The notes under the pieces: generated by a model | Told to the model about the DNA's origin: nothing | The model's input: the letters and a program-made list of their open reading frames with translations, nothing else | Databases searched by the model: none | Part shown: piece after piece, positions 19,229 through 59,677 of the stretch | Layout of the letters: every line of letters starts with the position of its first letter | Position numbering within the stretch: the stretch's first letter is position 1 | Translations under genes and position numbers: made by a program | From: Thermoleophilaceae bacterium | GTDB taxonomy: Bacteria > Actinomycetota > Thermoleophilia > Solirubrobacterales > Thermoleophilaceae | Assembly: GCA_030447725.1 (NCBI GenBank) | Contig: JAUJOQ010000004.1 | Span: forward strand, 227,231 to 291,230 | Length of the DNA stretch: 64,000 nt | Reading direction: 5' to 3'

Positions 19229-19299
19229 TGGGGACTGGTGTAACGGCAGCACGCCACTCTCTGGAAGTGGAAGTTGGGGTTCAAATCCCTGGTCCCCAG
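19229..19299 (+). tRNA. tRNA-Gln (anticodon CTG)
   Basis: Cloverleaf: TGGGGAC/GTCCCCA acceptor, CCACT-CTCTGGA-AGTGG anticodon arm, TGGGG-TTCAAAT-CCCTG T arm; U1-A72 typical of tRNA-Gln. Confidence 0.9.
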
Positions 19300-33747: not shown

Positions 33748-33820
33748 TAGCTCCGGGTGGAATCGAACCACCGACCTCTCCATTATGAGTGGAGCGCTCT
33801 AACCGCTGAGCTACGGAGCC
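33748..33820 (-). tRNA. tRNA with CAT anticodon (tRNA-Met or tRNA-Ile2)
   Basis: Reverse complement GGCTCCGTAGCTCAGCGGTTAGAGCGCTCCACTCATAATGGAGAGGTCGGTGGTTCGATTCCACCCGGAGCTA; loop CTCATAA. Confidence 0.88.
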
Positions 33821-51489: not shown

Positions 51490-52071
51490 ATGGCACTTTC
51501 CCGCCCCCTGCTGCTGGTGCTCCTCGGCCTGATGCTGGCCACCGCGACGCTGTTTGCCGCCCGTGGCGCCAACCAGAGCGCAGCCGATACCGCCTCGAGC
51601 CCCGTGGTGCCCACACCGGTGTCTCCGGAACCCGCCGAGAAGGCGGCCGATCACAACGCAAAGCCTGGGGCCGATCACGACCCGAAGCCCGCTCGGAAGC
51701 GTGAAGCGCCCGGCGCCGGCCGCGAGGAGTCCGCCCGCCCGGCAACCGCCGCAGCGGCACTGCCCGCGGGTGTCCCCGCTCGGGTGGGGCGCGCCCTGCG
51801 CGACCGCAAGGTCGTGGTCCTGTTCTTCGGACAGGGCGGCGCCGACGACCGGGCAACCGCCCGGGCCGTGGCGTCCCTGCGTGGGTTGAAGCGCATCGCG
51901 ATCTTCAGGGACGGCATCCAGAACCTGGTCAAGTACCGTGGAATCGTCAGCGGTCTCGGCGTGGCCCAGGCCCCTGCCGTCGTGATCGTTTCCACGAGGC
52001 GCCGCGCGCGGCTGATAGAGGGGTTCGTCGACTCGGGCACCCTCAGCCAGCACGTAGTGGACGCCCGATGA
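51490..52071 (+). CDS. membrane-anchored, possibly thioredoxin-like protein
   Basis: N-terminal TM LLLVLLGLMLATATLFAARG; C-terminal VVVLFFGQGGADDRATARAVASL...VAQAPAVVIVSTRRRARLIEGFVD; overlaps pilB start. Confidence 0.55.
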   Translation: MALSRPLLLVLLGLMLATATLFAARGANQSAADTASSPVVPTPVSPEPAEKAADHNAKPGADHDPKPARKREAPGAGREESARPATAAAALPAGVPARVGRALRDRKVVVLFFGQGGADDRATARAVASLRGLKRIAIFRDGIQNLVKYRGIVSGLGVAQAPAVVIVSTRRRARLIEGFVDSGTLSQHVVDAR

Positions 52072-53810
52072 GTGAGCCCGCCCCGGCCGCCACAGCTTCC
52101 GCGCCGCAAGGCACCGGCAACGGCCTTACTCCTCCCAGGCGGCGAAGCGGTCCATCGCGGGTCATCGGCGATGTGATCGTCGACCTCGGTTATGTGGATC
52201 GCGAGCGCGCCGACGCCGCAGTGGAGGAGTCACGCCGGCTTGGCAAGCGCGTGGGGCAGGTGTTGGTCGAAGCCGGCGCGCTCAGCCCCGAGCAGCTTGC
52301 GCACGCGCTGGCCGAGCAATTCGGGCTCGACTACGTCGACCTGAACGTCTATCAGACCGACGTGTCGGCGATGAACCTGGTCTCCCACAAGGCGGCCCGG
52401 AGGTTCGAGGCAGCGCCACTCGGCTTCGACGAATCCGGCGCGCTGGTGGTCGCGATGGCCGACCCGTCCAACATCCTGGCGCTCGACGACCTCAAGCTGA
52501 TGACCGGGCACGAGATCCGCCCTGCAGTCGCGTCCGCCGAAGACGTGGCGAACCTGATCAGCCGCATGACCCGCCTGGAGGACGCGGTCGCGGAGGCGAT
52601 CGGGGACGAAGAGGAAGAGGACGGCCTCGCGCCGGTCACCGACATCCGCGAGACGTCCGCCGACGCGCCGATCATCAAGCTGGTCAACTCGATCATCGCG
52701 CAGGCCGTGGAGCAGGGCGCCTCCGACGTTCACCTCGAGCCCGACGGCCGCGACATGCGCGTCCGCTTCCGTGTCGACGGCGTGCTCGCGGAGACGACCA
52801 CGATCCCGCGCCGGATGGTGGCGGGCGTGGTCTCGCGCATCAAGATAATGGGCGAGCTCGACATCTCCGAGAAGCGCCTGCCCCAGGACGGCCGGGTGGG
52901 GCTCAAGGTGGAGGGGCACGGTGTGGACGTGCGCATAGTGACGATGCCCTCCGTGCTCGGCGAGGGCGTGGTCATGCGCCTGCTCGACAAGGGCAAGGCC
53001 CTGGTCGACCTCGACGCGCTGGGGATGTCCGCCCACGCCCGCGACCGCTTCGAGACAGGCTTTCGCAAGGCGCACGGCGCAGTGCTCGTGACGGGCCCGA
53101 CCGGCTCGGGGAAGAGCACGACCCTCTACAGCGCGCTCAACATGATCAACTCGATCGACAAGAACATCATCACGATCGAGGATCCGGTCGAGTACCAGCT
53201 CCCGGGCGTCAACCAGCTGCAGGTGAACCTGAAGTCCGGCCTGAGCTTCGCGCGCGGCCTGCGCTCGATGCTGCGCGCCGACCCCGACGTGATCATGGTC
53301 GGCGAGATCCGCGACGCGGACACGGCCCGGATCGCCGTGGAGTCCGCCCTCACCGGCCACCTCGTGCTGTCCACGCTGCACACCAACGACGCTCCGTCGG
53401 CCGTCACGCGCCTCACCGAGATGGGCATTGAGCCCTTCCTCACCGCGTCGGCCCTCGACTGCGTGGTGGCCCAGCGCCTGGCGCGCCTCCTGTGTCCCCA
53501 CTGCAAGCGCCCGAACACCTACAGCGCGGCCGCGCTGGCGGCCGCCGGCCTACCCGCCAGCCACGAGGTCGTGGCCTACGAGCCGGTGGGCTGCAGCCGC
53601 TGCAAGGGCACCGGCTACAAGGGCCGCCTAGGTCTGTACGAGGTGATGCCGATCACCGACGAGATCCGCAGCATGGCCATCGAGCGCACCTCTTCGGAGG
53701 AGATCGGGCGCGTTGCCGTCGAGCAGGGCATGACCGTCCTTCGCGAGGACGGCTTCGAGCGGGTCAAGCAGGGCGTCACGTCCATAGCCGAAGTCGCGCG
53801 TGTCACGTAA
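52068..53810 (+). CDS. pilB: type IV pilus assembly ATPase PilB/GspE
   Basis: GspE N-terminal domain; GASDVHLEPDGRDMRVRFRVDGVL; TGPTGSGKSTTLYSALN; RADPDVIMVGEIRDADTARIAVESALTGHLVLSTLHTNDAPSAVTRL; CPHCKRP...CSRCKGTGYKGR. Confidence 0.95.
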   Translation: MSEPAPAATASAPQGTGNGLTPPRRRSGPSRVIGDVIVDLGYVDRERADAAVEESRRLGKRVGQVLVEAGALSPEQLAHALAEQFGLDYVDLNVYQTDVSAMNLVSHKAARRFEAAPLGFDESGALVVAMADPSNILALDDLKLMTGHEIRPAVASAEDVANLISRMTRLEDAVAEAIGDEEEEDGLAPVTDIRETSADAPIIKLVNSIIAQAVEQGASDVHLEPDGRDMRVRFRVDGVLAETTTIPRRMVAGVVSRIKIMGELDISEKRLPQDGRVGLKVEGHGVDVRIVTMPSVLGEGVVMRLLDKGKALVDLDALGMSAHARDRFETGFRKAHGAVLVTGPTGSGKSTTLYSALNMINSIDKNIITIEDPVEYQLPGVNQLQVNLKSGLSFARGLRSMLRADPDVIMVGEIRDADTARIAVESALTGHLVLSTLHTNDAPSAVTRLTEMGIEPFLTASALDCVVAQRLARLLCPHCKRPNTYSAAALAAAGLPASHEVVAYEPVGCSRCKGTGYKGRLGLYEVMPITDEIRSMAIERTSSEEIGRVAVEQGMTVLREDGFERVKQGVTSIAEVARVT

Positions 53811-56168: not shown

Positions 56169-56489
56169 ATGACCTCGGCCGAACTGGTACGCAAGGCCCG
56201 CACGCGTCATGGGCTGAACCAGGCAAGCTTGGCGCGGCGCTGTCGAACGAGCCAGACCCACATCAGCCGCATCGAGCGGGGCGAGGTGTCACCCAGCGTC
56301 GAGACTCTCCAGCGAATCCTGCGGACCTTGGGCGAGAGGCTGGAGCTGGGCGCCGTTCCGGCGCCGCGGGGCAACGAATCGGACGCCGAGGTCCGCGCGG
56401 ACATGGAGCTCTCGCCCGCCGAGCACCTGCTCCAAGCGGCCGAGCTGTCCTTTGCGCTGACGACGATCGCCGGGAGTCCGCAGCGATGA
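56169..56489 (+). CDS. XRE-family HTH protein
   Basis: LVRKARTRHGLNQASLARRCRTSQTHISRIERGEVSPSVETLQRILRTLGERLEL. Confidence 0.88.
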   Translation: MTSAELVRKARTRHGLNQASLARRCRTSQTHISRIERGEVSPSVETLQRILRTLGERLELGAVPAPRGNESDAEVRADMELSPAEHLLQAAELSFALTTIAGSPQR

Positions 56490-57027
56490 GCCGTGGCGAC
56501 GACTCGCACTCACCCGCCGGCCGGCGCTCCGAGCCCCCGATGCGACCGCTCGACCTGCTCGCGGCTCTGCGCCGGCACGACGTCGAGTTCGTCGTCATCG
56601 GCGGCTACTCGCTGGCGGCCCACGGCTACGTGCGCGCGACGAAGGACGTGGACGTCGTACCTGAGCCCAACCGAGCAAACCTCAGCAGGCTCCTGGCTGC
56701 GCTCGATGAACTCGATGCCGAGCCCTTGGCAAGGGGCGACTTCAAGGCGGAAGAGGTGCCCGAGCTCAACCTCCAGAACCTCGAGATGGGGGGAAACTGG
56801 CTGCTGCGGACACGGTACGGGCGTCTGGATGTCATGCAGTACGTCGAAGGCATGAAGAGCTACGGCAGCTGCGGGCCGGAGCGATCACCCGCGAGCTCCC
56901 CGGCTTCGACCGGCCTCCGCTGTTCGCGGGGCTCGACGACCTGATCGCTCTCAAGCAGGCAGCGGGCCGCGATCAAGACCTCGCCGACATCGCCGAGCTC
57001 GAACGCAGGCGACAGGCCAAGGGATGA
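56486..57027 (+). pseudogene. nucleotidyltransferase-like gene, apparent frameshift near 56840-56855
   Basis: Frame 1: VIGGYSLAAHGYVRATKDVDVVPEPN...LDVMQYVEG; from about 56851 a second frame reads HEELRQLRAGAITRELPGFDRPPLFAGLDDLIALKQAAGRDQDLADIAELERRRQAKG-stop. Confidence 0.75.
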
Positions 57028-57036
57028 GACCAGGGG

Positions 57037-57465
57037 CTACTCCTCGACTTCGATCACGCCGATCTTGCGCCGCTCGCCGGTCTCCCCCGGCGTAAAGGTC
57101 ACGGCGTACTTCTCGGGCGGTCCGGCCAGCACGTCGAACCGGGCCGGCCCGTTGGGCACGGCCGGCGCGGTCAGTCCCAACCGCTCGATCTCGACCTGGC
57201 CGGGCTCGTAGGCCGTGACGGTCACCGTGACGGCTCGCCCGGCCGGCACGGTCCTGGTCTCCGGCTGGAGGTCCGCCTCGAAGGCGATCTCGACGGGAGG
57301 GCCCGGGCCGGGGGCAGGCCCGGCCGTCGGAGTGGATCCCTTCCGCGGCGGAGCTTCGGCGGCGGTGTCGGCCTTCTCCTCCTCTGGTGGCCGGGAGACG
57401 GACGCGGCGATCGCGGCCAGGCCTAGCACGATGGCGAACAGCAGGAGTGCGCGACGAAGCTCCAC
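57037..57465 (-). CDS. membrane-anchored/exported protein
   Basis: MELRRALLLFAIVLGLAAIAASVSRPPEEEK then beta-rich VTVTVTAYEPGQVEIERLGLTAPAV...YAVTFTPGETGERRKIGVIEVEE. Confidence 0.55.
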   Translation of the reverse strand: MELRRALLLFAIVLGLAAIAASVSRPPEEEKADTAAEAPPRKGSTPTAGPAPGPGPPVEIAFEADLQPETRTVPAGRAVTVTVTAYEPGQVEIERLGLTAPAVPNGPARFDVLAGPPEKYAVTFTPGETGERRKIGVIEVEE

Positions 57466-57572
57466 GGACGTGCCCGATCCTAGTCACGCCGGGAGGGCAT
57501 GGACGAATGGACTACTGCGAAATGAACGACTTCCTAAAGGTCTGCCGGGAGGGCGTCGATCTAAGGGGCAAC

Positions 57573-57676
57573 CAGAGTCACGGTGACAAAGGCAAACCCG
57601 TCGCGAGGCGGGGGCGCAAAGTTCCGGGACTCCATCAGGGACTCAATCCCCCTGGAGGAGTCGGCCGAGCTGCCAC
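57573..57676 (+). ncRNA. c-di-GMP-I (GEMM) riboswitch aptamer candidate
   Basis: GTCACGGTGACAAAGGCAAACCCGTCGCGAGGCGGGGGCGCAAAGTTCCGGG...GGAGTCGGCCGAGCTGCC: conserved GGCAAACC, helix CCCGTC/GGCGGG capped by GCGA tetraloop, GCGCAAAG; upstream of pilA. Confidence 0.85.
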
Positions 57677-57677
57677 C

Positions 57678-57751
57678 TTGGAGTCGCTCCTAGGAAAAGG
57701 CAGGAGCCGCGGCGACTGGCACCAGACCATCCAGTCACTCCAAACAGGAGG
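57678..57751 (+). promoter_or_regulatory. candidate riboswitch expression platform leading into pilA RBS
   Basis: TTGGAGT (57678-57684) pairs with ACTCCAA (57737-57743), enclosing AGTC/GACT and GCTCCT/AGGAGC pairings; AGGAGG at 57746-57751, ATG at 57758. Confidence 0.5.
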
Positions 57752-57757
57752 TAGCAA

Positions 57758-58162
57758 ATGCTGCGGAAGCTCAGTCAGCGTATCCATTCCGAGGAGAAGG
57801 GCTTCACCCTTATCGAGCTCCTCGTCGTCATCCTGATCATCGGCATCCTGGCCGCGATCGCCCTGCCAGCCTTCCTTGGCCAGCAGACGAAGGGCCAGGA
57901 CGCCTCGGCCAAGTCGGACGCCCGTAACGCGGTCTCCCAGATGGAATCGTGCTACACGGACGCCGAGACGTACATCGGCTGCGCCGCCAAGCTGCCGGCC
58001 GGTTCCAACGTGGTCGTGGCTACCCCCGAGGCAGCCGACTCCTACAAGGTTACCGCCACGTCGAAGTCTGACAACACCTTCTCCATCACGAAGGCGGCCA
58101 ACGGCACCACCAGCCGCACCTGTACGGGTACGGACGGCGGTTGCAACGCCGGTACGTGGTAA
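57758..58162 (+). CDS. pilA: type IV major pilin
   Basis: KGFTLIELLVVILIIGILAAIALPAFLGQQTKGQDASAKSDARNAVSQMESCYTDAETY: class III signal peptide with E5 and two C-terminal Cys. Confidence 0.95.
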   Translation: MLRKLSQRIHSEEKGFTLIELLVVILIIGILAAIALPAFLGQQTKGQDASAKSDARNAVSQMESCYTDAETYIGCAAKLPAGSNVVVATPEAADSYKVTATSKSDNTFSITKAANGTTSRTCTGTDGGCNAGTW

Positions 58163-58183
58163 CAAGTCCAACCAGAAGCAGTC

Positions 58184-58211
58184 ACGAGGCGGGCCCGCGG
58201 GCCCGCCTCGT
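58184..58211 (+). terminator. perfect 13-bp hairpin 3' of pilA
   Basis: ACGAGGCGGGCCC-GC-GGGCCCGCCTCGT; no strong U-tract. Confidence 0.65.
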
Positions 58212-58219
58212 CGTTGTGT

Positions 58220-59677
58220 ATGACCGCGGCGGCGAATCCTCACCTTTCGCCCCGTGCTGCCGATAACGTTGAGGTGGCCGCCTCTCCGCTCACTCGCACG
58301 CTTCGCGACCAGCGCGGCTTCACCCTGCTCGAGGTCCTGGTCGCGATGCTCATCCTGACCGGAGGCGTGCTCGGCACGGTCGCGCTGATCGACGGCGCGA
58401 ACGCGTCGACGTCCTTCACCAAGGGTCGGGTGGGAGCCACCAACCTCGCACGTGAGCTGACCGAAACCTCGCGGTCGATCGACTACGACACGCTCACCAC
58501 TGCGGCGCTCGCCGGCGAGCTGCAGGCCAGGCCGGGCCTCACCGACTCGGACCCCGCGATGTCCGGCTGGCAGCTCAAGCGCCGGGGGATCACCTACACC
58601 GTCGGGTCGTCGGCGTGCATCTTCGACGATGCCACCGACGAGACGGCCGCCCACGACGCCACCTTCTGCTCGAACTCGGCCACCACTCCGCCGGGGGATA
58701 CCAACCCCGACGACTACCGGCGCGTGAGCTTCGACGTGACCTGGAAGAGCCGGGGCGAGCCCGGGAAGGTTTCCCAGAGCACCCTGATCACCAACCCTTC
58801 CGGCGGCCTCGGGCCGAGCATCCTCGACATCGTCGGCCCCGACATCTGGACCGACGAGACCGCCCAGCCCCCGCCCTACACGGTCTTGAGCACACCTGCC
58901 GCGACCGTGCGCTGGTCCGCGGACGACGGCACCTCGGGCGGCAACGCCACCGGCGGGCCGACCGAGTGGCCGTTCACCTGGCAGCTCGGGACGAAGGGCG
59001 CCTGGTCGTGCCCCAACACACCTGACTGGCTGGTCGACGGCGCCTACGTCCTCACGGCCCAGGCCTTCGACGTCCGCGGCATCCCCGGCGACCTGAAGAC
59101 CAAGACGGTGACTCTCGACCGCTCGGCCCCGGCGCCGCCGTGCGGGCTCAAGGGCGGTCTGAACGGCGCGAAGTTCGAGCTCGAGTGGTCGCGGAACCCC
59201 GAGCGCGACATCAAGGGCTATGAGGTGTACCGGCGCAAGGTGGGCCCCGAGACGGCCGACCCGATCGTATGCAACCGCACCACGAAGACCGAGTGCGTCG
59301 ACCAGAGCCCCCTACCGCTCGGCACGGTGGTGAACTACTACGTCGTCGCCATCGACGGAGGGGGCAGGCGCGGGCAGTCGGCAGACTTCTCCATCCTCCA
59401 AGCCGCGAACGAGGCGCCGCTACCGCCAGGTCAGCTCACCGGGAGCATCGAGGACGGCCAGCCCGTGCTCAGATGGACGGCCGCAACCGACGCCGACGGC
59501 ACGATCGCCTTCTACCGCATCTATCGCGACGGCACCGCGCTCGCGGACCGCTACGGCGCCACCAGCGGACCGCAGCTCTCGTTCACCGACAAAGGTGCGA
59601 CGGGGCACCAGTACTGGGTGACCGCGGTCGACGACAAGTTCGCCGAGTCGCTGCCCGTGGGACCGGTGAGCCCGTGA
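58220..59677 (+). CDS. minor pilin-like (PilV/GspI type) protein with FN3-like domains
   Basis: RGFTLLEVLVAMLILTGGVLGTVALI prepilin motif; two FN3-like repeats (FELEWSRNPERDIKGYEVYRRK...YYVVAID and PVLRWTAATDADGTIAFYRIYRDG...YWVTAVD). Confidence 0.85.
   Translation: MTAAANPHLSPRAADNVEVAASPLTRTLRDQRGFTLLEVLVAMLILTGGVLGTVALIDGANASTSFTKGRVGATNLARELTETSRSIDYDTLTTAALAGELQARPGLTDSDPAMSGWQLKRRGITYTVGSSACIFDDATDETAAHDATFCSNSATTPPGDTNPDDYRRVSFDVTWKSRGEPGKVSQSTLITNPSGGLGPSILDIVGPDIWTDETAQPPPYTVLSTPAATVRWSADDGTSGGNATGGPTEWPFTWQLGTKGAWSCPNTPDWLVDGAYVLTAQAFDVRGIPGDLKTKTVTLDRSAPAPPCGLKGGLNGAKFELEWSRNPERDIKGYEVYRRKVGPETADPIVCNRTTKTECVDQSPLPLGTVVNYYVVAIDGGGRRGQSADFSILQAANEAPLPPGQLTGSIEDGQPVLRWTAATDADGTIAFYRIYRDGTALADRYGATSGPQLSFTDKGATGHQYWVTAVDDKFAESLPVGPVSP

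What the first reader, a model, noticed from the sequence alone, without database searches (positions are those of the whole stretch)
57573..57757. c-di-GMP-I riboswitch candidate in the leader of the major type IV pilin gene
Seen directly: the pilA leader contains GTCACGGTGACAAAGGCAAACC, a CCCGTC-GCGA-GGCGGG hairpin with a GNRA tetraloop, GGGCGCAAAG, a second G/C-rich arm and a closing GCCGAGCTGCC. These match the GEMM-I (c-di-GMP-I) consensus as I know it. Between aptamer and RBS is a long helix (TTGGAGT/ACTCCAA closing nested pairings) ending 2 nt before AGGAGG. Established: c-di-GMP riboswitches control pilins in some other phyla. Inference: pilin expression here is directly gated by c-di-GMP at the RNA level.
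Basis: partly seen in the sequence, partly recalled or inferred. Interest (0 to 1): 0.78.

Follow-up and report, generated by a model that had tools for sequence, protein, structure and literature searches.

The report
c-di-GMP riboswitch before pilin gene
The messenger RNA for the main pilus protein of this little-studied actinobacterium begins with a standard sensor for the bacterial signal c-di-GMP, so the cell probably tunes pilus production directly at the RNA; the sensor class is well known, but I found no description of its regular use on pilin genes in this group.

Summary
Rfam matches a complete class-I c-di-GMP aptamer at 57582-57678 (+). Scores are 60.9 bits to RF03167 (gathering 59, E 6.7e-12 for the window) and 53.8 bits to RF01051 (gathering 35, E 1.2e-9 for the genome). 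Rfam's best label, "c-di-GMP-I-GGC", should not be read as a GGC variant: the ligand-contact bases are canonical (G20, A47, C92), and A47 holds in all 84 aptamers compared.

The aptamer leads a 134-aa type IV prepilin gene (57758-58162). At least 26 distinct pilin leaders in the order carry it, and in the family 12 of 20 genomes with a PilA homologue do. The genome has diguanylate cyclase and phosphodiesterase genes and no detected PilZ protein.

There is no + strand intrinsic terminator, and across relatives the Shine-Dalgarno (SD) sequence sits in a covarying hairpin, so control is probably translational. Ligand binding claims that strand, which suggests an ON switch. That sign is inferred: equilibrium folding did not show it. 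Verdict: new member of a known kind, modest interest.

The parts
57582..57678 (+). c-di-GMP-I aptamer (whole Rfam match)
   Evidence: cmscan RF03167 60.9 bits; RF01051 53.8 bits in genome search
57582..57585 (+). P1 5' strand GGUG, pairs with 57674-57677 CACC
   Evidence: sequence; coordinates
57591..57591 (+). G20, ligand-contact base (Vc2 numbering)
   Evidence: role of G20 from PMC4744006, PMC3764141
57592..57617 (+). P2 with GCGA tetraloop (57603-57606)
   Evidence: alignment; P2 pairs 96-100% canonical over 84 distinct aptamers, with compensatory changes at several pairs
57618..57620 (+). A47-A49 (J2-3); A47 is the intercalating base, canonical A and not the G of the GGC model
57621..57672 (+). 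P3 with an extended loop, and J3-1
57669..57677 (+). GCUGCCACC: J3-1 plus P1 3' strand, includes C92 (57673) and C93 (57674); complementary to the SD region AGGAGGUAGC
   Evidence: rank 1 of 26; 13 of 2000 shuffles
57678..57684 (+).
57686..57736 (+). two inner hairpins (57686-57707 and 57714-57736) enclosed by A/B in the predicted fold
57737..57743 (+). ACUCCAA, arm B; pairs with A, or its CUCC pairs with GGAG of the SD
57746..57751 (+). Shine-Dalgarno sequence AGGAGG of pilA
   Evidence: sequence
57758..58162 (+). pilA: type IV prepilin, 134 aa (N_methyl, ComP_DUS)
58184..58211 (+). intrinsic-terminator-like stem after pilA (12 bp)
52068..53810 (+). PilB extension ATPase with MshEN domain, upstream in the same pilus cluster

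Best explanation
This is a canonical class-I c-di-GMP riboswitch in the 5' leader of the type IV pilin gene pilA. Shown by sequence: a complete aptamer with canonical ligand-contact bases; a conserved position before pilin genes in the order; no intrinsic terminator on the + strand of the leader; and, in the set of relatives, a covarying hairpin over the SD. Inferred: control acts on translation. Most likely sign, inferred: without c-di-GMP the aptamer's 3' strand (57669-57677, GCUGCCACC) together with UUGGAGU pairs with the SD (AGGAGGUAGC) and ACUCCAA and hides the SD. With c-di-GMP, C92 and the P1 strand are held in the aptamer, the SD side of that helix cannot form, and pilin translation rises (ON).
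For: Rfam match above both gathering scores. G20/A47/C92 canonical, with A47 in 84 of 84 and G20 in 83 of 84 distinct aptamers of the order. 26 distinct pilin leaders carry the aptamer, which begins within about 136-194 nt of the start codon. In the family 14 of 45 hits lie within 180 nt upstream of a PilA homologue, against about 0.002 expected (arithmetic). The genome encodes about six GGDEF proteins and one EAL protein, and no PilZ was found. SD hairpin: own pairing beats swapped pairing in all 5000 permutations, and in all but 5 of 20000 on 21 representatives below 80% identity. No + strand terminator in the leader. Window-specific aptamer-strand/SD helix -26.7 kcal/mol against -14.7 +/- 2.8 shuffled, 0 of 2000. 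In the compact, non-pilin aptamers of the same order J3-1 (UUGCC) likewise can pair with GGCA(A) at the SD in most leaders.
Against: Equilibrium folding of the window leader gives almost the same SD accessibility free and bound (0.23 against 0.30 for 57577-57760). The aptamer-strand/SD helix dominates only when folding stops at the start codon; with coding sequence added the local CUCC/GGAG hairpin wins in both states. Over 26 relatives bound and free do not differ consistently. Aptamer-strand/SD covariation is not significant across relatives (3753 of 20000; with arms A and B added 858 of 20000). The window's own local SD hairpin is weak. No promoter or transcription start was identified.
Confidence: 0.7

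Rival explanations
1. Same c-di-GMP-I riboswitch, but an OFF switch: ligand binding forms P1 and leaves ACUCCAA free to pair with the SD (CUCC/GGAG), so translation falls.
For: With the aptamer forced, the predicted SD partner is the local B strand (about 0.6). OFF switches exist in the class (Cd1, PMC9262584).
Against: The local hairpin is predicted just as strongly without ligand for most 3' ends, so it is not ligand-dependent in the model. The aptamer strand/SD complementarity would be unexplained.
Confidence: 0.2
2. The RNA is a c-di-GMP-I-GGC variant that senses another ligand, as the best Rfam label suggests.
For: RF03167 scores above RF01051 for this aptamer.
Against: The base at position 47 is A, not the G of the RF03167 consensus (alignment). 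All 84 aptamers compared have A47. RF01051 also matches well above its cut-off.
Confidence: 0.05
3. Transcription attenuation (Rho-dependent or intrinsic) rather than translation is controlled.
For: The Bc1 riboswitch has a long expression platform with terminators (PMC11218506); Rho-dependent sites cannot be excluded here.
Against: No + strand intrinsic terminator in the leader. Covarying SD hairpin across relatives. Actinomycetota tend to use translational platforms (PMC12452182).
Confidence: 0.12
4. Chance resemblance or a decayed aptamer with no function.
For: None beyond the absence of binding data. Vc1 shows that conserved contact bases do not guarantee strong binding (PMC4744006).
Against: E-values, conserved position before pilins, compensatory changes in P2.
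Confidence: 0.03

Closest known systems
c-di-GMP-I (GEMM-I) riboswitch, RF01051; type member Vc2 of Vibrio cholerae
   Same: Three-helix fold, GNRA tetraloop on P2, G20/A47/C92 contacts, P1 as the probable switching helix
   Different: High-GC actinobacterial sequence, A at position 19, long P3 loop, a roughly 80-nt platform between aptamer and start codon
c-di-GMP-I-GGC, RF03167
   Same: Best-scoring Rfam model overall (60.9 bits)
   Different: Position 47 is A here and G in the model consensus, so the pocket change seen in that model is absent
C. difficile pilus c-di-GMP riboswitch (Bordeleau et al. 2015, cited in PMC6916266; that it is class II before pilA1 is from my own knowledge)
   Same: A c-di-GMP riboswitch regulating type IV pili
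   Different: Another aptamer class and another phylum
Geobacter pilM cGAMP riboswitch (PMC9262584)
   Same: GEMM-I fold, pilus gene target, ON switch
   Different: It senses cGAMP and acts on a transcription terminator; here G20 is kept and no terminator is present

Membership tests
c-di-GMP-I riboswitch (RF01051) | Covariance-model match above the gathering score | tested here: met
   53.8 bits against 35
c-di-GMP-I riboswitch (RF01051) | Ligand-contact bases G20, A47, C92 | tested here: met
   57591 G, 57618 A, 57673 C
c-di-GMP-I riboswitch (RF01051) | P1-P2-P3 with a GNRA tetraloop on P2 | tested here: met
   GCGA loop; P2 covariation over 84 aptamers
c-di-GMP-I riboswitch (RF01051) | Position in the 5' leader of a motility, membrane or surface gene | tested here: met
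   pilA; the aptamer ends about 80 nt before the start codon
c-di-GMP-I riboswitch (RF01051) | Binds c-di-GMP | not testable with these tools
   needs in-line probing or ITC
c-di-GMP-I-GGC (RF03167) | Model match above the gathering score | tested here: met
   60.9 bits against 59
c-di-GMP-I-GGC (RF03167) | G at position 47 (model consensus GCGAAG) | tested here: not met
   GCAAAG in the window and A47 in 84 of 84 aptamers; that GGC names the three pocket bases is from memory, the naming paper was not held
cGAMP (GEMM-Ib) riboswitch | A at position 20 | tested here: not met
   G20

The most novel reading that the evidence does not exclude
In this order the aptamer's own ligand-contact strand (J3-1 and P1 3') serves as the anti-SD strand, and a set of such riboswitches, on pilins and on secreted proteins, is a major output of c-di-GMP in bacteria that seem to lack PilZ receptors.
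Probability: 0.3. Interest if true: 0.55.

Novelty: new member of a known kind. Interest (0 to 1): 0.38.

Why it matters
It extends direct RNA-level control of type IV pilins by c-di-GMP to the Solirubrobacterales/Thermoleophilaceae group of Actinomycetota, where I found no paper on it in the library searched. It points to a multi-gene riboswitch regulon in a lineage in which no PilZ receptor was found in the genome tested. It also warns that the Rfam label c-di-GMP-I-GGC can be assigned to aptamers with the ordinary pocket.

Tried and rejected
GGC variant reading: rejected on position 47. Thermodynamic prediction of the sign from free and bound folds: no consistent change; a first version of the window run had coordinates off by one and was replaced. 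Pairing of the P1 3' strand with the recurrent CUGGC motif in the platform: not better than swapped or shuffled. Upstream arm A with arm B as a general antisequester: 12 of 5000 with one choice of regions, not significant with another (3606 of 20000); the shuffle signal comes mainly from the window and two relatives, so I do not claim it for the family. Intrinsic terminator: none on the + strand of the leader. P1 5' strand pairing with the SD in the compact, non-pilin type: not better than swapped. The first Pfam scan of the second riboswitch's gene (protein 1) was one base out of frame; the repeat in frame also found no family.

Full report
What is there. The leader of the pilin gene (57758-58162, 134 aa, N_methyl and ComP_DUS matches) holds a complete class-I c-di-GMP aptamer at 57582-57678 on the + strand. 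RF03167 gives 60.9 bits (gathering 59); RF01051 gives 53.8 bits (gathering 35) in the genome search. The upstream gene (57037-57465) is on the other strand, so the leader is probably the start of the transcript; no sigma-70-like promoter was found in 57400-58260.

Which aptamer. Rfam's best model is named c-di-GMP-I-GGC. Its consensus has G where the Vc2 aptamer has A47; the window has A (alignment). The contact bases named in PMC4744006 and PMC3764141 (G20, A47, C92) are 57591 G, 57618 A and 57673 C. Over 84 distinct aptamers of the order, A47 is invariant and G20 is present in 83; P2 pairs are 96-100% canonical with changes on both sides at several pairs. So the pocket is the ordinary c-di-GMP pocket. 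That GGC stands for the three pocket bases is from memory; the naming paper was not held.

Distribution. RF03167 matches occur in 22 of 31 genomes of the family and RF01051 in 128 of 232 of the order. Relatives by PilA sequence are Solirubrobacterales and Thermoleophilaceae MAGs. 26 distinct pilin leaders carry the aptamer. Comparing, 12 of the 20 family genomes with a PilA homologue have an aptamer within 180 nt upstream of one; 14 of 45 aptamers are so placed against about 0.002 expected by chance. It is not universal: several genomes have pilins without it, and in some tandem pilin arrays only some copies have it. Loci were taken best first, so the sample is biased to strong matches, and the 84-aptamer count uses a pattern that fixes the length of P2.

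Signal. The genome encodes about six GGDEF proteins and one EAL protein; no PilZ domain was found at E 1e-3 in a 94% complete genome. PilB in the window (52068-53810) has an MshEN domain and is related to solved PilB, PilF and MshE domains. By eye its second 24-residue motif (RVGQVLVEAGALSPEQLAHALAEQ) nearly fits the published pattern, while the first is degenerate (pattern from PMC5013675).

Platform. Across relatives the SD sits in a small hairpin such as GAUCC-AAGGA-GGAUC. Own halves fold better than swapped halves (-6.0 against -4.5 kcal/mol, 0 of 5000; 5 of 20000 on 21 representatives). This is the best evidence for translational control, with the absence of a + strand terminator. The window's version (CUCC/GGAG) is one of the weaker ones.

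UUGGAGU (57678-57684) and ACUCCAA (57737-57743) close a predicted structure that leaves the SD free, -23.4 kcal/mol, nearly equal to an alternative with the SD in the local hairpin, -23.1. UUGGAGU follows P1 directly, and the helix can continue: GCUGCC-A-CC from the aptamer pairs with GG-A-GGUAGC at the SD. Total -26.7 kcal/mol against -14.7 +/- 2.8 for shuffles, 0 of 2000, and first of 26 when SD regions are swapped. This strand holds C92 and C93, so ligand binding and SD capture exclude each other. From this I infer an ON switch. The second aptamer of the genome (G000:C7:72650-72726) is of a compact type whose J3-1 UUGCC can pair with GGCAA at the SD, the same logic; but in some of these the P1 5' strand can also pair with the SD, which would argue for OFF, so the compact type is ambiguous.

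Limits. Folding at equilibrium does not show a ligand-dependent change of SD accessibility, and the anti-SD helix is not significantly covarying over relatives. Several pairing tests were run on the same 26 leaders, so only the SD hairpin result is strong enough to survive that. Sign and size of regulation need experiments. No paper in the library was found on this riboswitch in this group; the library lacks most subscription journals.

Verdict. Confirmed, a new member of a known kind. The specific claims that go beyond annotation are the canonical pocket despite the GGC label, the order-wide link to pilins, the covarying SD hairpin, and the aptamer strand as probable anti-SD in the window.

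Noticed in passing
G000:C7:72650-72726 (L003:4651-4727): Second c-di-GMP-I aptamer in the genome, directly before the SD of a gene for a 298-aa protein with a signal-peptide-like N-terminus and no Pfam match; similar compact aptamers precede secreted-looking proteins in several relatives.
   Followed up: partly
window 52068-53810: PilB has an MshEN domain; its second c-di-GMP-binding motif is near the published pattern and the first is degenerate, so c-di-GMP may also act on the extension ATPase.
   Followed up: partly
whole genome G000: No PilZ domain found although about six GGDEF and one EAL protein are encoded.
   Followed up: partly
window 56169-56944: A helix-turn-helix gene followed by a nucleotidyltransferase-like gene (weak DUF6036 match) between the pilC-like gene and pilA: possible toxin-antitoxin pair.
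   Followed up: no
L033:645-1600: Two pilin leaders in tandem in one relative, each with its own aptamer.
   Followed up: no
window 33748-33820 (-) and 19229-19299 (+): Two tRNA genes found by cmscan in the window.
   Followed up: no
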